DNA of 8,981 nt from an uncultured Chloroflexota bacterium (GTDB taxonomy: Bacteria; Chloroflexota; Dehalococcoidia; SAR202; UBA11138). The number at the start of each line of letters is the position of its first letter. Position 1 is the first letter of the stretch. Location of the stretch: contig CAJWRP010000059.1 in the NCBI GenBank assembly GCA_913046025.1, forward strand, positions 1 to 8,981, written 5' to 3'. The notes beneath the pieces are model-generated. The model worked only from the letters and a program-made list of their open reading frames with translations, made no database searches and was not told the origin of the DNA. This document shows positions 1-8,981 of this stretch, piece after piece. Made by a program: the position numbers and the translations under genes.

Positions 1-1
1 G

Positions 2-1609
2 CGAGAGTTGGAGCAATTGGGCTACAAATTCAGGTCCGAATCTGACACCGAGGTTCTGCTGCAAGCCTACCAGGAATGGGGCGAGGCTTCGGCATGCCGT
101 TTCCGAGGGATGTTCGCATACGCTATCTGGGATACCTATCGCCGCCAAATGGTTTTGTTCAGGGATCGAGTGGGGATCAAGCCTCTGTACTATTACTGGG
201 ATGGCAGGACGTTCGCTTTCGCCTCTGAGATCAAGGCGATTCTGGCCCTACAAGCCGTGAACCGAGAGCCTGATGTCGGCGCGATTTCAGATTACCTCAC
301 CTACCTCTACATTCCTGCTCCGAAATCTGCTTACAAATTCATCAAGAAGTTACTGCCGGGCCACACATTGTCATTGCCACACGATCAGGGTTCTCCTATC
401 CTTCGACGCTACTGGCGACTAGAGCCTTCGGAATCCGGCATCCAGAATCGAACCGATGCCATCCATGCGGTTCGGGACGAACTGAAATCCGCCGTTCAAG
501 CCCATTTGGTCAGCGACGTGCCGGTTGGAGTGCTTCTCAGTGGTGGAATCGATTCCAGCACGGTCACTGCTGTCATGAGCGATCAACTATCGGACCCAGT
601 TCATTCGTTCTCAGTCGGTTTTAACAGCCAACTTCACGATGAAACAGAATATGCCAGAGAGGTCGCCGAGATGTTCGGCACTTCTCATACTGAAAAGATT
701 GTGGATGGCGACATTGCGGAAGACATTCTTGATCAGACGGTCAGGATGTACGATGAACCATATGCAGACTCATCGGCTATCCCGACTCATCAAGTGAGCG
801 CCCTCGTTCGCAGCCAGGGAGTCAAGGTCGTGCTATCTGGCGATGGAGGAGACGAGGTATTTGGAGGCTATGCCCGGTACCGAACATGGCTGAATCGACG
901 ATTAATAGATCGGACGCCTCTCAGTCTACGACGGACGATTCTCAGATCGGGAATGGTATCAGATTCGTTGTTGGGACGGTCGATAAGGCAGGCCCGTCTG
1001 GACCCACTCCAGCGATACGCCAGTTATGTAGAGCTTTTTACGAGGGACGAAAAGTCCCAGATTATCAGCCCCGATGTATCAGGCCAGGCTGAAGATGACC
1101 CTTACTGGTATTTCAGACAACACTGGAGGCCCGACCTAGACTCGGTTACCCGACTTCAGTATCTGGATTTTAACACCTACCTCCCCGATGATATTCTGAC
1201 CAAAGTTGACCGTGCCAGCATGGCGGTCGCTTTGGAGGTGAGACCACCGTTATTAGATCACATGCTAATCGAAAAAGTTTTCTCGATTCCTTCGCGGCTC
1301 CGTTGGTCAGCGACGAACCAAAAAGGGCTGCTCAAGGATGCCGCTCGCCAGTGGCTGCCAGATTCAATCTTGAATCGGCCCAAAAGGGGTTTCAGCTCTC
1401 CTATCGCTAACTGGCTCGGACCGAATAAGGACTGGGCCTTTGACTACATCGCACATGGCGAGGCACGGAAATCCGGATTGCTAGGCCCCGGCTCAGTGAC
1501 TATCGACCCAATGGACGGAGCCTGGGGGCCGAAGATTTGGGCGCTTCTTGTATTGGAAACATGGATGCGACGGCAGAGTTCAGTGACACCGGTAGACCCA
1601 CGAATCTAA
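2..1609 (+). CDS. asnB: Asparagine synthetase B-type glutamine amidotransferase, 5' end outside window
   Basis: The family transfers an amide from glutamine to an ATP-activated carboxylate, classically aspartate to asparagine, in the cytoplasm. The frame is open from base 2, so the start lies upstream; the TTG at 8 is an internal Leu. About 533 residues are visible, and the family usually has 600-650. The first ~80 residues are the end of the N-terminal glutaminase domain (RSESDTEVLL, RFRGMFAYAIWD, RDRVGIKPLYY); the N-terminal Cys nucleophile is in the missing part. Counting from base 8, the synthetase domain carries the pyrophosphate loop SGGIDSS (178-184), YDEPYADSSAIPTH (248-261), SGDGGDEVFGGY (277-288), and later LTKVDRASMAVALEVRPPLLDH and KRGFSSPIANWL. 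The stop lies one base before the glycosyltransferase start. Sitting among glycosyltransferases, it may amidate a sugar acid rather than make free asparagine; that is inference. Confidence 0.95.
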   Translation, partial: RELEQLGYKFRSESDTEVLLQAYQEWGEASACRFRGMFAYAIWDTYRRQMVLFRDRVGIKPLYYYWDGRTFAFASEIKAILALQAVNREPDVGAISDYLTYLYIPAPKSAYKFIKKLLPGHTLSLPHDQGSPILRRYWRLEPSESGIQNRTDAIHAVRDELKSAVQAHLVSDVPVGVLLSGGIDSSTVTAVMSDQLSDPVHSFSVGFNSQLHDETEYAREVAEMFGTSHTEKIVDGDIAEDILDQTVRMYDEPYADSSAIPTHQVSALVRSQGVKVVLSGDGGDEVFGGYARYRTWLNRRLIDRTPLSLRRTILRSGMVSDSLLGRSIRQARLDPLQRYASYVELFTRDEKSQIISPDVSGQAEDDPYWYFRQHWRPDLDSVTRLQYLDFNTYLPDDILTKVDRASMAVALEVRPPLLDHMLIEKVFSIPSRLRWSATNQKGLLKDAARQWLPDSILNRPKRGFSSPIANWLGPNKDWAFDYIAHGEARKSGLLGPGSVTIDPMDGAWGPKIWALLVLETWMRRQSSVTPVDPRI

Positions 1610-1610
1610 C

Positions 1611-2756
1611 GTGCGAATCGGATACGTCTCAGACTCGTTCATCCCTTCGGGCGCGGCCAACTCGATGCACGTTATGAAGATGGGACAAGCATTGGCCCAA
1701 GAAGGTCACCAGGTCAGGCTGACAGCGAAAAAGTCATGGGGGGCGATGGCGCCCGACAAAGGCTATCTGATGTCACACTACGGCTTGGAGAGACTGTTCC
1801 CCATAAGATTGATTCCCTATCACCGACTGACTAAGGGACTCGACTACGATATTCGATCCGTTCTATGGGCCAAGCGTCCCGGGTGCGACATGATCTACAC
1901 TCGCAGCATCCGGGCCGCATTATTTGCCACAGCCATCGGACATAACACGATATTTGAAGCCCACAACGTGCCAGCCGGTTCCTTGGGCGCCTGGTATTTT
2001 CGTCGAATTTTGAACAACGGCAACTTATCAAAAGTCGTTGCCATCACCCACGCGCTTAAGAAACTTCTCCTGGAGAACTTTTCCGATGTGTTGTACGACG
2101 ACCGAGTGATCGTCGCGCCGGACGGCGTGGACCTGGAACGGTTTTCAAATCGACCAACTAAAGCGGAAGCACGGCTGGCGCTGAATTTGGACCCGCAGGA
2201 TTTCGTCGCTGGATACGTCGGTCACCTATACCCTGGACGCGGCGTGGAGCAAATATTGGACATCGCGAAACGATCTCACGACATTGTTTTTCTGTTTGTC
2301 GGAGGCACTCCCCAGGATATTGCGAACCGTAAACGGCAGGCTGCAGAAATGGCCTTAGACAACGTGCGGATTGTCGGGTTCGTTGCCAACTCAGAACTGC
2401 CGACATTCTATGCTGCCTGCGACGTACTGCTCATGCCATATCAGCGCGAGGTCGCGGTCAGTGGAGGTGGCAACACAGCCAATTACATGAGTCCCATGAA
2501 GATGTTTGAGTACATGGCCACCGGGCGTATGATAATAGCCAGTGACCTGCCGGTTCTGCGGGAGATCCTCGACGATACGAACGCTGTCCTATGCGACCCT
2601 GACGACATCCCAGCGTGGCGAAATGCTCTTCAGCGGGCGAAAATTGATGCCGAATGGAGTCTGAGTTTAGCCGTGAACGCTAGCGCCAAGGTGGAGAATT
2701 TTACGTGGAAGCGCAGGGTCCAAAACATATTTCATGATTTCACACCCGCAAACTGA
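1611..2756 (+). CDS. Glycosyltransferase family 4 (GT-B fold)
   Basis: This is a retaining GT-B glycosyltransferase of 381 residues, a normal family length, probably adding a sugar to a lipid-linked glycan at the cytoplasmic face. The N-terminal Rossmann domain starts MRIGYVSDSFIPSGAANSMH, the usual acceptor-side glycine loop, and contains FEAHNVP (115-121). The C-terminal donor domain carries VVAITHALKK (142-151), VAPDGVDLERF (168-178), YVGHLYPGRGVEQ (202-214), FVGG (229-232), NSELPTFYAACDVLLMPY (260-277) and SPMKMFEYMATGRMIIASDLP (294-314). The last replaces the common E-x7-E form with an SPxKxFEY variant seen in many GT4 proteins. The start is GTG at 1611, one base after the asnB stop and without a clear Shine-Dalgarno, so translation is probably coupled. 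Donor and acceptor cannot be told from the sequence. Confidence 0.93.
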   Translation: MRIGYVSDSFIPSGAANSMHVMKMGQALAQEGHQVRLTAKKSWGAMAPDKGYLMSHYGLERLFPIRLIPYHRLTKGLDYDIRSVLWAKRPGCDMIYTRSIRAALFATAIGHNTIFEAHNVPAGSLGAWYFRRILNNGNLSKVVAITHALKKLLLENFSDVLYDDRVIVAPDGVDLERFSNRPTKAEARLALNLDPQDFVAGYVGHLYPGRGVEQILDIAKRSHDIVFLFVGGTPQDIANRKRQAAEMALDNVRIVGFVANSELPTFYAACDVLLMPYQREVAVSGGGNTANYMSPMKMFEYMATGRMIIASDLPVLREILDDTNAVLCDPDDIPAWRNALQRAKIDAEWSLSLAVNASAKVENFTWKRRVQNIFHDFTPAN

Positions 2757-2759
2757 TTT

Positions 2760-3357
2760 GTGCCGGAGTTAAAGACGGTCAAGATCATGATGAACAAAAT
2801 CCTTCCCAAGTTTAGTATCGTGACTCCGTCATACCAAGGCGGCCGGATTCTTGAAAGCGCGATGCAATCTGTTATTGACCAGAAATACCCTAATCTGGAG
2901 TACATCGTTATCGACGCCGGCAGCACCGATGGGTCATTGGACATTATTCGCAAATACGAACATGATCTGGCGTATTGGACTTAAGCGCCTTTATGCTTGG
3001 TTCGGAGTGGCTGAATAGCGCTATGAGGCTAAATGGGAGCGCTTTGGATGGCAATTGACAACATCAGGGAGTGATCGTACAGTTGTGCCATCTCCGTATG
3101 GTTCGTTAATGAAAGTACTGGATTCCATCTGGGAAATATCGGGCCAAATCAACCGCAGATATGATCAAGGAAAGTTACTAGAAGCCGTTGGAGGGATGAG
3201 GGCGCTGTGCCCCGCACAAAGAAGCACTATCAATAACATTGGACTTTGGACGATATATCAGGACAGTGAATTGATAACAGCGCTGAATTCCAACTGGGAA
3301 ATTCCGGTTACCTCGAATAACGCTGACATTGGAGGAACCGGAAATTTACAGGCTTAG
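2760..3357 (+). pseudogene. Decayed glycosyltransferase family 2 gene
   Basis: An inverting GT-A family 2 glycosyltransferase appears to have stood here and been broken. The first 74 codons (GTG 2760, or ATG 2787/2790, to TAA 2982-2984) are clean: FSIVTPSYQGGRILESAMQS followed by YIVIDAGSTDGSLDII, the nucleotide-sugar binding half, ending at YEHDLAYWT. In intact relatives YW is followed by a D-x-GQ-type segment, a GF..(T)GE..WLNSDD motif, a WLTT motif, a QESTFWRRSLWE motif and a D[WF]ELW motif. Here they appear degraded and out of frame: AFMLGSEWLNSAM at about 2987-3026 in another frame, then WQLTT (3049-3063), PAQRSTINNIGLW (about 3211-3249) and LNSNWEI (about 3283-3303) in a third frame. 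The open stretch 3055-3357 is best read as this remnant and not as a new gene, although ATG 3109 could start an 82-residue peptide. The motif matches are by eye. Confidence 0.7.
3055..3083 (+). promoter_or_regulatory. Possible sigma70 promoter inside the GT2 remnant
   Basis: TTGACA at 3055-3060 and TACAGT at 3078-3083 are separated by exactly 17 bases. The spacing and -35 are ideal and the -10 is moderate. It lies about 245 bases ahead of the GT-C gene and could drive it now that the upstream gene is broken. The TTGACA also encodes part of the former WQLTT motif, so the match could be fortuitous. The same block recurs at 5911-5939 with a better -10. Confidence 0.4.
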
Positions 3358-5056
3358 ACAGCTGAACCTGCCCGCAATCTCTACTCAGTGGCAACTGGTC
3401 GCCGTCATCATGCTTATAGCCTTGGCTCCCCAGGCTTACAAGCTGATCATGCCGCCTGTGGAGTTGACTAACGGATTCATCTCCGATGACACGTTTTACT
3501 ACCTCAAAACCGCTCGAAATATCAGCGCCGGGTTGGGATCGACCTTCGATACGATAAATCCCACCAACGGGTACCACCCCCTGTGGATGCTGGTTCTTTC
3601 CGTGCTGGCGATGATCCCTCACAGCATACTCGGCTTTTATTATGTTGCTCTCGGCGCGAATCTGTTACTGGTAGCTGCAGTCTCGCTGTTGGTCTTCATA
3701 ATGTTCAAAGATTACTTGGGGGTATTTCTGACAGGGTTTCTGCTTGTGTTGATGAATGGGGCCTTTGTTAGCGCTCAGGCCTTGTTTTCTGGCAAAGAGA
3801 CTGCTCTATATATTTTGTTGTTACTCCTGAGCATCCAGGTCTTAAGTAATATCAGTTTTGCCGATAGAAGAAAGCTGTTGGCGCTGAGCGCGTTATTTGG
3901 TCTAACGTTTCTCGCGCGCACAGAATTCGCGCTATTTGCTCCAACGTTCGCGCTGTACGTTGGATATAAATTGGCAACAGATAACTCATTAAAGCTCAAA
4001 GAGTTTGTGGCTGGATTACCATATCTAACAATTCCATTTTTCGTAATCGTTACGCCATATTTGGCTTGGAATCGTACGCAGTTCGGCAGCTTCCAGCAGC
4101 TTAGCGGGCTGATAAAAAGCAGAGGGCCGTCCGACACGCTGGAGTCGGTGAGCAACTTCGTCCACACTCTGAAAGTGTTTGGGCACACTGTCTACGGCGC
4201 CATAGAGATGAGGCCCACGTTTGCTGGTGTGTTCATGTTGGCTGTTGTCGTCCTGTTCGGTTACGTGTGGGTCAGAGGTAGAGGACGCTTGGGTTTCTTC
4301 GCCGATAGGAGGATCGTCCTGTTGTCGTTGTTCGCCCTCACGGTGTTTGCTTACTATTTCGTTGAATTTGGCGCTCTGCGCCTTCGTTCTTGGCATTTGG
4401 CCGTTGTGTACATCACCGCCCAGATTTTGTTCGTGCATGCCATCAGATACACGTTTCTCCACTTCTACAGACGAGTTCCCATCGATTGGCCCCCGTCAGT
4501 GGACCTCCGCAACCCAAGACAAGCGACACTGCGTCTCGTGGGCAGTTCCCTGAGCGCAGCCCGCAAAGCGCCTTGGATTGCCGTGATATTACTTCTGGTT
4601 CTGGCGATGGCAGCCAATCACTGGGTGAAGACGCCTTATTATAGATTTGCTCATCGGAATTCTCATATTCATTATGTCGCTCCGAAGCCGTATCAGCATT
4701 TTGTCTCTGAATGGATACGAGACAACGTTCCTGATGAGGCAACGGTCGGGCTGGACGACGCAGGATACGTCGGATACTTCTCAGATAAGAAGATCGTGAA
4801 CCTCGACGGACTGGCAAATGGACGTGAGTTCTACTGGGAATACCTTGAGAAAGGGCGGGGTGTAGACCAGTACATCATAGACAAAAAGATCGATTACGTG
4901 ACCGATTACTATTTTGGAGAACCTAGTCTGCCTCAATCTCCGCTGCTTGGTCCCAAGCTTGAGTTAGTCTACAACGTGGGGAGATCGGACATCGTCCGCC
5001 AGGGAATTGAAACGTTCGTGGACTGGTACGTCTGGAAGGTCCACCATGATCGGTGA
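3329..5056 (+). CDS. GT-C type integral membrane glycosyltransferase (ArnT/PMT-like)
   Basis: The 575-residue polytopic membrane protein has the layout of GT-C enzymes that use polyprenyl-phosphate sugars on the outer face of the membrane. After a hydrophobic segment at 22-41 comes ISDDTFYYLKTARNI (51-65), with the acidic pair expected in the first external loop. NPTNGYHPLWMLVL (77-90) is typical of this subgroup. About ten further hydrophobic segments run to residue 430. The soluble tail has WIRDNVPDEATVGLDDAGYV (462-481), GYFSDKKIVNLDGLANGREF and IDYVTDYYF, a pattern common in this subgroup. The start is uncertain. TTG 3329 is the only usual start codon between the stop at 3284 and ATG 3407, but GGAGG lies just after it (3331-3335), seven bases before an ATT at 3344. 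The start overlaps the GT2 remnant by 29 bases. The sugar and acceptor are unknown. Confidence 0.85.
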   Translation: MEEPEIYRLRQLNLPAISTQWQLVAVIMLIALAPQAYKLIMPPVELTNGFISDDTFYYLKTARNISAGLGSTFDTINPTNGYHPLWMLVLSVLAMIPHSILGFYYVALGANLLLVAAVSLLVFIMFKDYLGVFLTGFLLVLMNGAFVSAQALFSGKETALYILLLLLSIQVLSNISFADRRKLLALSALFGLTFLARTEFALFAPTFALYVGYKLATDNSLKLKEFVAGLPYLTIPFFVIVTPYLAWNRTQFGSFQQLSGLIKSRGPSDTLESVSNFVHTLKVFGHTVYGAIEMRPTFAGVFMLAVVVLFGYVWVRGRGRLGFFADRRIVLLSLFALTVFAYYFVEFGALRLRSWHLAVVYITAQILFVHAIRYTFLHFYRRVPIDWPPSVDLRNPRQATLRLVGSSLSAARKAPWIAVILLLVLAMAANHWVKTPYYRFAHRNSHIHYVAPKPYQHFVSEWIRDNVPDEATVGLDDAGYVGYFSDKKIVNLDGLANGREFYWEYLEKGRGVDQYIIDKKIDYVTDYYFGEPSLPQSPLLGPKLELVYNVGRSDIVRQGIETFVDWYVWKVHHDR

Positions 5057-5066
5057 TTAACTTTGA

Positions 5067-5315
5067 GAGGGTTTCAGGTTGGACTTTGGACAAAGTGAAC
5101 GTCATGGCCTCGATGAGCAATACCAACTACTACAAGATAGGCTTGTGCGTCCTAAAGACGGCCCCTTCGGAGGTCCGATCTACAAGGACGGCAACCAGGA
5201 TGCCCTTGACTCCATCGAGGAGAACGGCTGTGTTGACATCCCCGAAGGCTTAGGCGTCGCGAGCGACTGCGACTTCATCACCGCCAGCCAGATCGGCTCC
5301 CAGGTCATCGAGTAA
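5067..5315 (+). pseudogene. Coding-like gene remnant, possibly 3' end of a BMP-type binding protein
   Basis: The frame is open from 5067 to a TAA at 5313-5315; the only usual start is TTG 5079, with no clear ribosome binding site. From about 5140 the third codon positions are mostly C or G (gac ggc aac cag, gag gag aac ggc, gac ttc atc acc), unlike the more AT-rich neighbours, which suggests real coding ancestry from a different source. The string FGGPIYKDGN followed by VDIPEGLGVASDCDF resembles the C-terminal region of BMP/Med-family substrate-binding lipoproteins of ABC transporters (GPI..DG.....PEG...SD). That resemblance is weak, and an insertion-like stretch interrupts it. There is no signal peptide or upstream portion here, so if it is that family it is only a tail. 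Confidence 0.3.
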
Positions 5316-5890
5316 CGTTCAGGATTCGGGGCCGAAATTTATCGAAACCTGCGTGAACTCGAGTTGCCTGTACTTCTTGCCGCCTGGAACACGATCGAAT
5401 GGCCCATATCTGACGCTTCGGCTTTGAAACCTGTCTAGGATATTCAATCTTGAACTGGCGTATCCACATTAATAATAACAGCCGTTACAGCCGAGAAAAC
5501 ATTTGGGAGGAATTCGACTCGGTTTTCTATACCGCGGCTTATCAATTGGTTCACTCTATTTTTGAATGCTGCACTCGTATCTGGGCTAATGACACTTGGA
5601 TGTCTGTCAGGTTAAATTTGGGCTTAGAATGAGGTATCCAGTCTGATTCTCAAGTCCGCTAAGATTGACTCTCTGAACCCTCACAAAAGTCGTCGGGAAT
5701 GCACTTAACTAATGATGATGTCATCGTCCCGTTATGGTATGTCTGGGTGCTGCACGATTGAGCGGTGACACGCCGCTCTCCGTCTGCTGCAAAACGCTCA
5801 GAACTAATCGTAAAACATACGACTCGAGGCAGTCCCACGCTTGATGGTCGTAGGCGACCTAGAAGCGGTCGATCAGGAGAACGAGTTGCA
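5316..5890. other. Intergenic stretch with no supported gene
   Basis: I see no convincing gene on either strand. A 60-codon frame at 5450-5632 has a TTG start, no ribosome binding site and an unremarkable composition. On the - strand a frame at 5447-5319 ends in a protein-like string (PFDRVPGGKKYRQLEFTQVS) that I cannot place; it could be the tail of a lost gene. Small hairpins occur at 5760-5778 (GAGCGG/CCGCTC, 7-base loop) and 5846-5859 (GGTCG/CGACC, 4-base loop); neither is followed by a T run. The stretch reads as decayed spacer. Confidence 0.5.
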
Positions 5891-5893
5891 ATT

Positions 5894-5949
5894 GTGACGT
5901 CAGACAGAGTTTGACAACATTAACGGGCGGTCATATAGTCGGTGACGTC
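5894..5949. repeat. Two direct copies of GTGACGTC bracketing the promoter
   Basis: GTGACGTC occurs at 5894-5901 and again at 5942-5949, 48 bases apart on the same strand. The first extends to TGACGTCA, a perfect 8-base palindrome. One copy ends 9 bases before the -35 box and the other covers the expected transcription start. This is the geometry of a pair of operator half-sites, but no regulator is encoded in the window and chance cannot be excluded. Confidence 0.35.
5911..5939 (+). promoter_or_regulatory. Near-consensus sigma70 promoter for the methyltransferase unit
   Basis: The -35 TTGACA (5911-5916) is perfect, the spacer is exactly 17 bases (5917-5933), and the -10 TATAGT (5934-5939) differs from TATAAT at one base. 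Transcription should start near 5946, giving a leader of about 178 bases before the methyltransferase at 6124. The leader contains the 28-codon ORF at 6045 and the block shared with 3055-3142. Confidence 0.7.
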
Positions 5950-6044
5950 GCAGAATGTGGTGGTTACGAGACCACTGGGTTCATCTGGGAAATATCGGAT
6001 AGAAGGGGATCATATGGTTCACACTATCTCAGGGTGGTGTATTT

Positions 6045-6131
6045 ATGAAATCAATGGAACCTGTCTGGGAAATGTCTCTTAATATGTCCTTGGATCGAAC
6101 GCCATTTTTAGGAGTTCCAACAGTTGAATGA
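6045..6131 (+). CDS. 28-residue leader ORF overlapping the methyltransferase start
   Basis: ATG 6045 opens a 28-codon frame (MKSMEPVWEMSLNMSLDRTP, then eight more residues) ending at TGA 6129-6131. AGGGTGG at 6031-6037 sits seven bases ahead, a fair ribosome binding site. The frame overlaps the TTG start of the methyltransferase by eight bases, so the two would be translationally coupled. The peptide is not recognised. Its beginning resembles the frame at 3109 (MKVLDSIWEIS against MKSMEPVWEMS), and the DNA matches there too. It may be a leader peptide, a short coupling ORF, or the remnant of a duplicated gene start. There is no run of a single amino acid that would suggest attenuation. Confidence 0.4.
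   Translation: MKSMEPVWEMSLNMSLDRTPFLGVPTVE
6110..6114 (+). promoter_or_regulatory. Ribosome binding site that fixes a TTG start
   Basis: AGGAG lies nine bases before TTG 6124. The next in-frame ATG (6154) has no such signal, so TTG is preferred as the methyltransferase start. Confidence 0.65.
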
Positions 6132-6840
6132 CCCATTGAGCAATTTTGCGACGATAATGGATGTGGATGGCCGATTGCTGGCTAGGCAAGGTTACTACAT
6201 AGACAACTACCTATTTCTCACTGATATATCTGGACAGCAAATGCTAGATATCGGAGGTGGAAGCGGTTTTTTGGGTTTGTACAATCTGATCGTCAGGGGC
6301 ATATCCTCTATATCGATCGTAGACTCATATGACTCGCATGGAGGCAAAGGAGGGCATGAGTCGGCTTATGACCACCTGATGGGGATAATTCAACGACACA
6401 AAATCAAGAACATTGATGTTATCAAAAGCGACATTCGCGACGTGAAGTTGTCATCTGGAAAATACGATTCCGTGTATGCAAGGAACGCGTTTCACCACAT
6501 ATTCACACACGGTCGTACGAAAGATTCGGATATCGTCGAGTTCATGCAGTCGATTCGCGAGTCGCTGGTTCCTGGCGGATCGCTGATAATTGGAGAGTCG
6601 TCTAGAAATCAAGTGTGGAGGTTCATCCCACCAATCCGCAAGCGTATGGCTAACGGTCGCTGGATTCAAAATCTAATCGCGCCTGGGCGTTGGAAACGCT
6701 GTGCCACATCAGCCGGATTCAAGACTGTCGATCTACGGTGGTATACGCCGTACCGACTCAGATGGCTGAAACCCATATTATCGAATCAGGTAGCTAACGC
6801 GTTCATGACCGGATCCTACGTCCTGGAGTTACGGAAGTAG
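6124..6840 (+). CDS. Class I SAM-dependent methyltransferase
   Basis: The 238-residue soluble protein has the seven-stranded Rossmann fold order of class I methyltransferases, which move a methyl group from S-adenosylmethionine to an acceptor. Motif I is MLDIGGGSGFLGL (40-52). An acidic residue after strand 2 is in SIVDSYDS (64-71). VIKSDIRDV (99-107) is the adenine-contact acidic loop. YDSVYARNAFHHIF (114-127) is motif IV, and VPGGSLIIGESS (149-160) is motif VI. The C-terminal third is basic and Trp/Arg-rich, with IPPIRKRMANGRWIQNLI and YTPYRLRWLKP, and may bind an anionic or membrane-linked acceptor. The start is TTG with AGGAG nine bases upstream, overlapping a 28-codon ORF. It has its own promoter at 5911, apart from the glycosyltransferase run. 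Its place suggests methylation of a glycan or lipid intermediate, but the substrate cannot be read. Confidence 0.88.
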   Translation: MNDPLSNFATIMDVDGRLLARQGYYIDNYLFLTDISGQQMLDIGGGSGFLGLYNLIVRGISSISIVDSYDSHGGKGGHESAYDHLMGIIQRHKIKNIDVIKSDIRDVKLSSGKYDSVYARNAFHHIFTHGRTKDSDIVEFMQSIRESLVPGGSLIIGESSRNQVWRFIPPIRKRMANGRWIQNLIAPGRWKRCATSAGFKTVDLRWYTPYRLRWLKPILSNQVANAFMTGSYVLELRK

Positions 6841-6862
6841 CTGGTTTGCAATCTGAACGAGT

Positions 6863-6884
6863 AATGGCTGAAAAGCGCCATTTT
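6863..6884 (+). terminator. Weak intrinsic terminator after the methyltransferase
   Basis: AATGGC (6863-6868) pairs with GCCATT (6877-6882) around an 8-base loop, and the stem runs into TTTT (6881-6884). It begins 22 bases after the methyltransferase stop. The stem is short and the T run only four, so it is a modest candidate. Confidence 0.4.
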
Positions 6885-6934
6885 CTGGTTAGCGGTCGAA
6901 TCGCTCGCGGGTTAATAGACATTTGTGACTAAAA

Positions 6935-6974
6935 CGAAACCGGCCCCTGGAAATCACTCCTAGGGGCCGATTCG
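6935..6974. terminator. Strong GC-rich hairpin, possible terminator
   Basis: CGGCCCCT (6941-6948) pairs perfectly with AGGGGCCG (6962-6969). Two further G-C pairs form inside past a bulged T, and CGAA/TTCG (6935-6938, 6971-6974) extends the stem outward past a small internal loop. On the + strand nothing T-rich follows. Read on the - strand, the stem is followed by GTTTCGTTTT, so it would terminate better in that direction. It may act as a bidirectional transcription barrier. Confidence 0.5.
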
Positions 6975-6984
6975 GCCTTACGCC

Positions 6985-7173
6985 GTTGGGCATCCTGGTT
7001 CATGAAGCCGGACACTACTTCGTGGCTGGATACTTTGGTGCATATGATCTACAACTTCACCACCGCGGTTACCGGGGGTTTGTGAGATATTCCGGGTATA
7101 TGAACTGGCCAGGATCAATCTGGTAAATTCTAGTCAATCAATCTCTGGCCAATAATCGAATTGGGAGGCGTCA
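6985..7173. other. Spacer ahead of the small protein gene
   Basis: No gene is seen. CTGGCCA occurs twice (about 7105 and 7144), the second copy just before the ribosome binding site. TGGTAAATT near 7122 resembles an extended -10 box without a good -35, so the promoter of the next gene is not settled. Confidence 0.4.
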
Positions 7174-7485
7174 ATGTACCTGATCAGGCGGGTGTTCAAG
7201 TGCAAACCTCGAACAGCTCGTAAAGCGGCTGAGCTGATTACTAAAATTGGAGAGGCTTATATGAACGCAGGCCAGAGGTCTCAGATACGAGTATATTTCA
7301 GCGGTGGAACTGTGCCTGAGCCCGCAGACACGTTGTACATGGACTGGACGAGCGAGGCCATCGAGTCACCCGGCAGGGAGGGAAATGTGACGCCGCGCGA
7401 AATAATAATGCCTCTATGGACAGAGGCTCTCGAGTATGTGGAGGAAGACCACATCGAATTCTATGAGATGTTCGAGCCTCGCTGA
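7174..7485 (+). CDS. Small 103-residue protein, probably ferredoxin-like (NIPSNAP/Dabb-like) fold
   Basis: This small soluble protein has no signal peptide or membrane segment. Its pattern is beta (MYLIRRVFKCK), helix (TARKAAELITKIGEAYMNAG), beta (QIRVYFSGGTV), beta (DTLYMDWTSEA) and C-terminal helix (IIMPLWTEALEYVEEDHIEF), which fits a dimeric alpha/beta-barrel such as the NIPSNAP, Dabb or ABM groups. The function of such proteins ranges from unknown to small-molecule monooxygenase or binding roles, and no catalytic residue is recognised here. The start is secure: GGGAGG at 7163-7168 lies five bases before ATG. Similar small proteins starting MYLIRRVF seem familiar from Chloroflexota genomes, but that is recollection, not a search result. 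It is isolated between two hairpins and the recombinase end, so context does not explain its role. Confidence 0.75.
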   Translation: MYLIRRVFKCKPRTARKAAELITKIGEAYMNAGQRSQIRVYFSGGTVPEPADTLYMDWTSEAIESPGREGNVTPREIIMPLWTEALEYVEEDHIEFYEMFEPR

Positions 7486-7573
7486 CATACTGGACGAGTC
7501 ACTGGCAGTTACTGTGGGAGTTTGGCATGCGCCCCATTGGTTCAGATGTAACTGTTGGTATCTCGCTTAACGA

Positions 7574-8981
7574 TCACGCCGCGAGCAGAACGCGGATTCC
7601 GTGTTCACGGTATAGTTCGACCCTCCCCCGTCTCCACCAGGAACACGGAATGGTCGCTGAATCGTCTGCTTCGGCAGGCGATTCGCGATCCTCAAGCTCA
7701 GACTCCACGACCAGAACCACCTGGCTCCCTTCGATCGTCGACGCGATCTCAAACAATGGCCGAAACGCCGACTTTGCTCTTATGGCTACGATGCTCTTCT
7801 CCTCTTTGCACTCAACATATACCGCCTCAAGCATGGTCGTCAGCATTTCTCGGCGCTGACTAAGGTCGGCCTTGGCCCAAAGATGTGGAAGGCTCTCCAG
7901 CATCTTTCCGGCAGTCTCTGCAGACTCCACTCCAGGAACTCTCAGGGTAGACAGTCGGTCCTCCAACTGACGCTTTTGCCTGCCGTACTCTTCATAATCA
8001 ACCAGATTATCCAGATATACCTGCCCCAGCCTCCGAAGCCGGCGCTCCACCCTGATTCGCTCGTTCTCAACTCTCTCAACCTCGTCGGATATCCCTATCT
8101 TCGCCTGCACTCGGTCCATCCAGGAGCTGGGCAGGACGAGAGCTTCCATCAACTGGTCCATCTGCCGGTCTGGAACACCGCAAAGTATAGAGCCTGAACG
8201 GTTGACACATGCCCCTGATCCCCTGGACCCTTTGTGCTCCCGATAGTAACGACGACCGCTCTTGTAGGTCTGGGCCCACATTGGCATCAGGCAGTGGGCG
8301 CAACGGATCAATCCTTTCAGAAGGTACTCTCGCTGAGGCCTGGGATTCATGGTGGCCGACCGCCCCGAGTTCTTCCTCATCGCTGACTGCGCCTGGTCGT
8401 ACACTTCGTCGGATACGAGAGGCTCGTGAAGCCCTGGGTAAGTCTCATCCTTGTGCTTGACCTTCCCTGTGAAGAAGGGATTGTGGAGGATGCCCCTGAC
8501 AGATGCCGTGGTGAATAGTCTGGGCCTGGCCTTGCTCTCATCCCCGTTTTGAAGCCTGTGACGATTTTTGGTCCGCAATCCACTGTCGTTCATCCAGACT
8601 GCCAGCTGAGAGAGCGTTGTCGTCCCTGTGGCGTACCTTCGAAACAACTCTTTGACTGCTTGTCCCTCTGTCTCCTGGATATGAATCCCTCCAGGATGCT
8701 CGATATCGCAGGTCAAGATTCGCTCCCCTCCCTCATGCTTCCAGCAACTCTCGTATCCGAAGGGGATGCTCCCCAGATGAAATCCCTTTCTGGCCCTCTC
8801 TTCGATACCCTTCCTGGTGTGGACAGCCAGCATGTCGGAGAAGAACTCTGCCATTCCTCCAATCATCTGAGTCGCAAGTTTCCCGTGAGGCGTCGAGTAA
8901 TCGATGTTCTCTGTGATCGACACCAGCCCGACACCATGCTGGCCCAGCATCCCTATCGCATCCAGTGTGACCTTCAGATTT
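7574..8981 (-). CDS. Large serine recombinase, N-terminus outside window
   Basis: The family carries out site-specific integration or excision of mobile elements through a covalent Ser-DNA intermediate. The frame is open to the window edge. About 468 residues are visible and roughly the first 100, with the catalytic Ser, are missing. ITENIDYSTPHGKL (residues 12-24 from the Met codon at 8950) and the following long helix MAEFFSDMLAVHTRKGIEER close the resolvase domain. A Recombinase-type domain follows (FHLGSIPFGYE, then VRGILHNPFFTGKV at 151-164). Next is a zinc ribbon with four Cys (217, 220, 248, 257), and then a charged coiled coil at about 286-335 (VERVENERIRVERRLRRLGQ). The last ~25 residues (CSWWRRGRVELYREHGIRVL) are not domain sequence: they are the antisense reading of a tRNA/tmRNA-like 3' end and an inverted repeat. 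So the gene end abuts or overlaps its attachment site. Confidence 0.93.
   Translation of the reverse strand, partial: NLKVTLDAIGMLGQHGVGLVSITENIDYSTPHGKLATQMIGGMAEFFSDMLAVHTRKGIEERARKGFHLGSIPFGYESCWKHEGGERILTCDIEHPGGIHIQETEGQAVKELFRRYATGTTTLSQLAVWMNDSGLRTKNRHRLQNGDESKARPRLFTTASVRGILHNPFFTGKVKHKDETYPGLHEPLVSDEVYDQAQSAMRKNSGRSATMNPRPQREYLLKGLIRCAHCLMPMWAQTYKSGRRYYREHKGSRGSGACVNRSGSILCGVPDRQMDQLMEALVLPSSWMDRVQAKIGISDEVERVENERIRVERRLRRLGQVYLDNLVDYEEYGRQKRQLEDRLSTLRVPGVESAETAGKMLESLPHLWAKADLSQRREMLTTMLEAVYVECKEEKSIVAIRAKSAFRPLFEIASTIEGSQVVLVVESELEDRESPAEADDSATIPCSWWRRGRVELYREHGIRVLLAA
7596..7651. repeat. Perfect 11-bp inverted repeat enclosing the tRNA-like 3' end
   Basis: ATTCCGTGTTC at 7596-7606 is the exact reverse complement of GAACACGGAAT at 7641-7651, with a 34-base interior. 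The interior holds the TTCGA...CTCCACCA sequence. Both arms lie within the recombinase 3' coding end. They may be arms of a recombinase binding site or a large hairpin at the gene end. Confidence 0.85.
7615..7639 (+). other. tmRNA/tRNA-like 3' end, candidate attachment site of an integrative island
   Basis: The + strand reads GTTCGACCC and then TCCCCCGTCTCCACCA, which has the T-loop TTCGA, a C-rich T-stem strand, an acceptor strand and CCA in the order of a tmRNA or tRNA 3' end. The upstream partner strands are absent: CGGTATAG precedes TTCGA, and no GGAGACG acceptor strand lies within 100 bases. So it is a fragment, not a gene. Such fragments mark the duplicated end left when an element integrates into the 3' end of an RNA gene. 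The adjoining serine recombinase fits this. The tmRNA gene ssrA is favoured over a tRNA from the sequence form. Confidence 0.6.

What the first reader, a model, noticed from the sequence alone, without database searches (positions are those of the whole stretch)
7574..8981. Serine recombinase gene ending inside a tmRNA-like 3' fragment: edge of an ssrA-type island
The recombinase C-terminal tail (SWWRRGRVEL) is simply the antisense of a CCA-ending RNA-gene 3' fragment at 7615-7639. No complete tRNA or tmRNA gene can be placed upstream of it. In Dehalococcoides, vinyl chloride reductase islands are known to sit at ssrA next to serine recombinase genes, and successive islands are separated by repeats of the ssrA 3' end. 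The same arrangement here would put an island boundary at about 7640, with one island running right out of the window and the glycan locus on the other side, possibly an older island itself.
Basis: partly seen in the sequence, partly recalled or inferred. Interest (0 to 1): 0.7.

Follow-up and report, generated by a model that had tools for sequence, protein, structure and literature searches.

The report
Island recombinase spanning its attachment site
This is most likely the join between two mobile DNA islands of a kind that inserts at a bacterial rescue-RNA gene; the islands' own insertion enzyme is encoded straight across the join, so its last few amino acids depend on whether the island is inserted, which may switch the enzyme's lifetime.

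Summary
Window 7616-7639 is exactly the last 24 bases of intact tmRNA (ssrA) genes in related Chloroflexota, no RNA gene is complete here, and a serine recombinase of the Dehalococcoides DsiB type reads antisense across it. The nearest relative carries most of the published integration module (dsiB, dsiA, ParB, Mom). New here: the recombinase does not end in the ssrA fragment. It runs 13 codons further (LYREHGIRVLLAA, stop at 7574-7576), through the second arm of an inverted repeat centred at 7623/7624. That is an attP-type junction (tandem islands or an excised circle), so the DNA just left of it is probably island DNA too. A recombinase 98.7% identical before the core has an ssrA-antisense tail instead, and tail type is scattered over the family tree. 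Tails not made by ssrA end in -AA in 38 of 73 cases, against 0 of 79 ssrA tails and 5 of 567 other reading frames. I read this as an integration-dependent swap of the recombinase C-terminus; an ssrA-like degron (as in mycobacteriophage BPs) is the boldest reading, untested. The 2011 Dehalococcoides paper already noted the overlap and the unclear stop codon.

The parts
7574..8981 (-). DsiB-type large serine recombinase, C-terminal 468 codons; runs off the right edge
7616..7639 (+). att core: last 24 bases of a tmRNA gene (T-loop to CCA); codes WWRRGRVE on the other strand
7574..7615 (-). 13 codons LYREHGIRVLLAA plus stop TGA, from the far side of the att core; ends in an ssrA-tag-like LAA
7596..7611 (+). 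left arm of the inverted repeat (distal half-site of the attP-type junction)
   Evidence: similar arms beside other core copies
7636..7651 (+). right arm of the inverted repeat (recombinase-side half-site)
7620..7624 (.). probable strand-exchange point (inferred): repeat centre is 7623/7624; in G016 four of five repeat copies differ from its ssrA core only within the first four bases
1..7573 (+). glycan-type locus (asparagine synthase, glycosyltransferases, methyltransferase); by inference the distal end of an island, at least next to the junction
   Evidence: inference from the attP-type junction

Best explanation
An attP-type junction of ssrA-specific mobile islands in a SAR202-like Chloroflexota. 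The island's recombinase gene spans the att core. When an island sits directly behind ssrA, its recombinase reads through the core into antisense ssrA and gets an arbitrary tail (PVQK...). When two islands lie in tandem, or an island is a free circle, the gene is completed by 13 codons carried at the islands' far end, here ending in VLLAA. Shown by sequence: identity of the core, the junction type, both tail states on closely related recombinases, and coding-like conservation of the tail in the window's clade. Inferred: that this window is a tandem junction (or circle), that the left genes are cargo, and that the tail regulates the recombinase, most likely as a C-terminal degron.
For: Core exact in intact tmRNA genes. 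Inverted repeat, 16-nt arms, 88% complementary. P0001, 98.7% identical over 447 residues before the core, has the ssrA-type tail (known as protein only, its DNA was not seen); further pairs of an ssrA-type and an LAA-type tail at 84-89%. On a FastTree tree of 152 recombinases, three tail states need 57 changes; the ssrA label is about as scattered as shuffled labels (47 against a mean of 50.8; 87 of 500 shuffles as low), the AA label somewhat clustered (28 against 34.9; 0 of 500). Core copies with no recombinase or tmRNA found beside them carry a like tail: G405 (L217), G003 (L155), G432 (L223, L224, L225), and L001 19-57 behind a degenerate core, 95% identical DNA. Over six chosen tails of equal length identity averages 55%, over the next 42 bases 26%. 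The nearest relative has dsiB, dsiA-like, ParB and Mom genes. In G645 one contig holds ssrA plus recombinase at 29 kb and, 25.6 kb on, a second core with another tail.
Against: Own genome not held, so tandem, circle and ssrA neighbourhood are unseen. Most core copies in related genomes lack an -AA tail: 8 of 97 non-ssrA copies (window included) in this frame, 3 and 1 of 97 in the other two frames, and 2 of 62 ssrA copies in this frame. In Dehalococcoidales-type genomes tails end otherwise (CFV, CFT, LMKP); in the Dehalogenimonas-like ones the conservation coincides with a hairpin seen by eye, and pN/pS of four tails is 1.17 (other frames 0.84, 1.13). pN/pS for LAA-type tails is only mildly below 1: 0.89 over 39 nt (other frames 1.05, 1.35) and 0.72 for seven hand-aligned codons, on few, selected, saturated sequences. 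One of them (L180) has a stop inside the tail. G645 has a tag ending YAA but a tail ending CFT, against a simple tag-to-tail match.
Confidence: 0.8

Rival explanations
1. Plain island edge: the left 7.6 kb is ordinary chromosome, the ssrA fragment is a far-end direct repeat, and the recombinase belongs to an island starting there; the tail is accidental read-through.
For: Direct repeats at island ends are normal (PMC3146451); many orphan core copies have unconserved sequence beyond them.
Against: The tail resembles far-end tails of other copies (L217, L001, L180, L155) and the ends of many related recombinases, and the second half-site arm is present; unrelated chromosome would not supply them.
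Confidence: 0.12
2. The junction and tail swap are real, but the LLAA tail is a structural or DNA-site feature (recombinase folding, half-site extension), not a degradation signal.
For: Part of the tail (YREHG) is the att arm itself; LKHGLAVLVA-like stretches recur in copies that do not stop there.
Against: -AA ends occur on tails of several lengths; codons and stop codons vary while the residues stay similar; the last 42 residues are predicted with pLDDT under 50, in a weak model of the truncated protein.
Confidence: 0.45
3. The contig comes from an excised circle rather than a tandem array.
For: A circle gives the same attP junction; nothing in these 9 kb separates the two.
Against: Tandem arrays are usual in Dehalococcoides (PMC3146451); four relatives with unlike tails are each listed with a longest contig of 311,923 bp, so probably lie on one contig.
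Confidence: 0.2
4. Chance resemblance to a tRNA/tmRNA end.
For: None found.
Against: 24 of 24 bases match intact tmRNA genes of relatives; reversed control 0 in 23 genomes.
Confidence: 0.01

Closest known systems
Dehalococcoides ssrA-specific genomic islands with DsiB (McMurdie et al. 2011, PMC3146451; also Dehalogenimonas, PMC13390414)
   Same: Serine recombinase overlapping the ssrA repeat, repeats of the ssrA 3' end, and dsiB, dsiA-like, ParB, Mom genes in the nearest relative; the paper already notes that dsiB has no stop inside the island and may be fully functional only on a circle or behind another island.
   Different: Here a candidate for the completing 3' fragment is identified, in a SAR202-like lineage, as a short coding-like tail ending in LAA; the Dehalococcoides-type tails seen here end otherwise and use another reading frame of the core.
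Integration-dependent immunity of mycobacteriophage BPs (PMC4557955, passages read)
   Same: attP lies inside a gene; integration changes the C-terminus and removes an ssrA-like tag present in the unintegrated form.
   Different: There the gene is the repressor (the integrase has its own signal) and proteolysis is reported; here the gene is the recombinase itself and proteolysis is only inferred.
CcrB/SCC recombinases
   Same: Large serine recombinase with a small partner; kinship with DsiB stated in PMC3146451.
   Different: Different target gene (recalled); not compared here.

Membership tests
ssrA-specific islands (Dehalococcoides type) | DsiB-like large serine recombinase | tested here: met
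   Pfam domains; 52-53% identical hits in G016, G086, G214.
ssrA-specific islands (Dehalococcoides type) | recombinase 3' end overlaps an ssrA repeat | tested here: met
ssrA-specific islands (Dehalococcoides type) | module dsiA, RecF-like, ParB, Mom next to dsiB | tested here: inconclusive
   runs out of the window; in the nearest relative L001 resolvase, ParB_N and Mom found, no RecF-like gene seen
ssrA-specific islands (Dehalococcoides type) | tRNA-like element inside mom | tested here: inconclusive
   ARAGORN finds none in relative L001; the window does not reach mom
ssrA-specific islands (Dehalococcoides type) | array downstream of the intact ssrA of the same genome | not testable with these tools
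   own genome not held
BPs-type integration-dependent switch | att site inside a gene whose C-terminus changes on integration | tested here: met
   by sequence comparison only:
BPs-type integration-dependent switch | unintegrated form ends in an ssrA-like tag | tested here: inconclusive
   38 of 73 non-ssrA tails end AA; many host tags end ALAA; a resemblance, with exceptions
BPs-type integration-dependent switch | proteolysis of the tagged form | not testable with these tools
   needs an experiment
BPs-type integration-dependent switch | switched gene is the repressor | tested here: not met
   gene is a recombinase

The most novel reading that the evidence does not exclude
The recombinase carries an ssrA-like ClpXP degron encoded by its own attP. 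As a circle, or in an inner tandem position, it is made unstable; insertion at ssrA, the gene for the very tag it imitates, removes the degron and leaves a stable recombinase behind ssrA that can capture further islands, which would explain tandem build-up.
Probability: 0.35. Interest if true: 0.8.

Novelty: new variant of a known kind. Interest (0 to 1): 0.6.

Why it matters
It offers a concrete answer to a question left open in 2011 (where dsiB ends and whether it matters) and turns it into a simple test: two recombinase forms differing only in the last residues. If the degron reading is right, an island senses its own integration through protein lifetime. Islands of this kind move dehalogenase genes in Dehalococcoides.

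Tried and rejected
Viral contigs gave no close relative: none with P0001, 8 distant ones with an alignment (20-32% identity). Plasmid and phage records gave only matches under 60% identity. The 103-aa ORF at 7174-7482 has no Pfam match and no plasmid match. None of six left-hand window proteins has a match in the 301 loci fetched, so nothing positive shows the left genes as cargo. As RNA, the recombinase strand around the repeat folds no better than shuffles (z -1.13; the other strand -2.77). I first took the conserved Dehalogenimonas-like tail as protein conservation; it coincides with a hairpin, so a family-wide conserved protein tail is not claimed. A universal -AA tail is rejected. The core peptide SWWRRGRVEL as a functional motif is rejected: other recombinase groups read the same core in the other two frames. 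No fold search was run, as the model was weak.

Counts and rows left out: of 223 proteins, 79 ssrA-type and 72 other tails in the window's frame were counted. Dropped: 60 without that motif, 6 plus 1 too short, 5 in the third frame. Of the 60 plus 1, 48 are in the LVETG frame, 20 ssrA-type and 28 other. Proteins cut off at contig ends could not be told apart. The 38 of 73 adds the window itself. Tail classes were made by pattern, the protein lists are capped at the best 120 per search, and relatives are not independent. The six and eight tails were picked by me for having such a tail; I dropped the last codon of L223, L224 and L225 to align them.

Full report
What is there. The right end of the window codes for a large serine recombinase on the minus strand, 468 codons to the edge. 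Its last part crosses 7616-7639, which is base for base the last 24 bases of tmRNA genes in relatives G442 and G008. No tRNA or tmRNA is complete in the window.

Relatives. Of 22 relative loci scanned, 16 have a tmRNA gene where the recombinase ends, 2 a tRNA-Pro, 4 nothing (three places were counted twice). The nearest relative, L001 (83% over the part it holds), has a small resolvase, ParB_N and Mom genes beside the recombinase, which fits the integration module described for Dehalococcoides ssrA islands, less its RecF-like gene (PMC3146451). Genomes G086 and G214 show the recombinase at coordinates that fit the published Dehalogenimonas islands.

The tail. After the core the family splits. 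Where an intact ssrA follows, proteins in the window's frame read PVQK or alike, antisense to the tmRNA T-stem. The window and many relatives instead read another tail, here LYREHGIRVLLAA and stop. The inverted repeat 7596-7611/7636-7651 flanks the core; its left arm lies in the tail codons, its right arm mostly in the recombinase codons before the core. That is how an attP site should look: two half-sites around the core. When the island sits at ssrA, one half-site is replaced by ssrA.

Tail switching. P0001, 98.7% identical over 447 residues before the core, has the ssrA-type tail (protein only). P0094/P0133 (89%), P0010/P0012 (89%) and P0075/P0146 (87%) differ in the same way. On one FastTree tree of 152 proteins three tail states need 57 changes; the ssrA label is nearly as scattered as shuffled labels, the AA label is somewhat clustered. 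Tails therefore seem to move by recombination rather than by descent alone.

Where the other tail lives. Core copies with neither tmRNA nor recombinase found beside them carry similar tails: G405 AYLEHGFAVLLAA, G432 LGDEHGKVLLAAA, LYDEHSPDVLLTAA and LGDEHSSMMLMAAA, G003 PALNSDYRLLSAA; G512 has AHLEHGAPVVLSA. A broken recombinase copy in G001 (L180) has the same tail with a stop inside it. L001 carries at its other end a copy 95% identical to the window over 38-39 bases behind a degenerate core. In G645 one contig holds ssrA with recombinase and, 25.6 kb on, a second core with a different tail, ending LCFT.

Is the tail coding? Among six tails of equal length, which I picked, identity averages 55% in the tail and 26% just after the stop. 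Stops are TGA, TAA or TAG. Differences by codon position are 0.41, 0.31, 0.56. pN/pS in the true frame is 0.89 against 1.05 and 1.35 in the others, and 0.72 for seven hand-aligned codons of eight sequences. This is supportive, not proof.

The -AA end. In the window's frame 37 of 72 non-ssrA protein tails end in AA, 38 of 73 with the window; ssrA-type tails 0 of 79. Distinct stop-to-stop frames of 200 codons or more in the fetched loci: 5 of 567. The AA tails come in several lengths. Many tmRNA tags of related genomes end in ALAA, while those of G016, G052, G086, G192 and G203 end in VLAG and the tails seen in this group do not end in LAA. But G645, with a tag ending YAA, has a tail ending CFT. 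Also against: among raw core copies -AA appears in only 8 of 97 non-ssrA copies, window included (3 and 1 of 97 in the other frames; 2 of 62 ssrA copies), so the feature belongs to part of the family or is lost from unused ends. The last 42 residues are predicted with low confidence in a weak model (mean pLDDT 61).

The left side. None of the six left-hand proteins matches any fetched locus. That they are island cargo rests on the junction alone.

Mechanism and precedent. The 2011 paper states that dsiB always overlaps attL, that its stop codon lies outside the island, and that it may be fully functional only on the circle or behind another island. The present data identify a candidate for such a 3' fragment in another lineage. 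Mycobacteriophage BPs has attP inside its repressor gene, and the unintegrated form is degraded through an ssrA-like tag (PMC4557955). By analogy I propose that the recombinase's lifetime depends on the integration state. That ClpXP reads C-terminal LAA is recalled general knowledge, not tested here.

Verdict. The glycan genes next to it probably belong to island DNA. The added finding, a recombinase whose C-terminus is swapped by its own reaction, is a new variant of a known kind; the degron step is open.

Noticed in passing
P0122: In one relative the recombinase frame runs on after the core motif into a homocysteine S-methyltransferase domain (829 aa), as if insertion had made a gene fusion.
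   Followed up: no
L283, L288 just beyond the core: Dehalogenimonas-like island far ends carry a hairpin-like inverted repeat soon after the att arm (seen by eye, not folded); it would explain the repeated TEGLMKP reading.
   Followed up: partly
L003/L007 1457-1532: A related recombinase in G002 ends beside a tRNA-Pro (cgg) gene instead of ssrA.
   Followed up: no
P0068, P0128, P0130, P0132: Four recombinases listed with the same longest contig length, 311,923 bp; three are 85-89% alike and the four tails differ, one ssrA-type and one LLAA.
   Followed up: partly
loci L002, L020, L023, L054: The same ssrA core is read in all three frames by different recombinase groups (WWRRG, LVETG, GGDGG or alike).
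   Followed up: partly
window 2760-2984: A glycosyltransferase-2 reading frame holds only the first 50 of 168 profile positions; the gene looks broken.
   Followed up: partly
L034, L038, L063: More distant serine recombinases have tails such as GDPDGIRTHDLHRDRVAC that look like antisense tRNA 3' ends (recalled resemblance), so the overlap habit may be wider.
   Followed up: no
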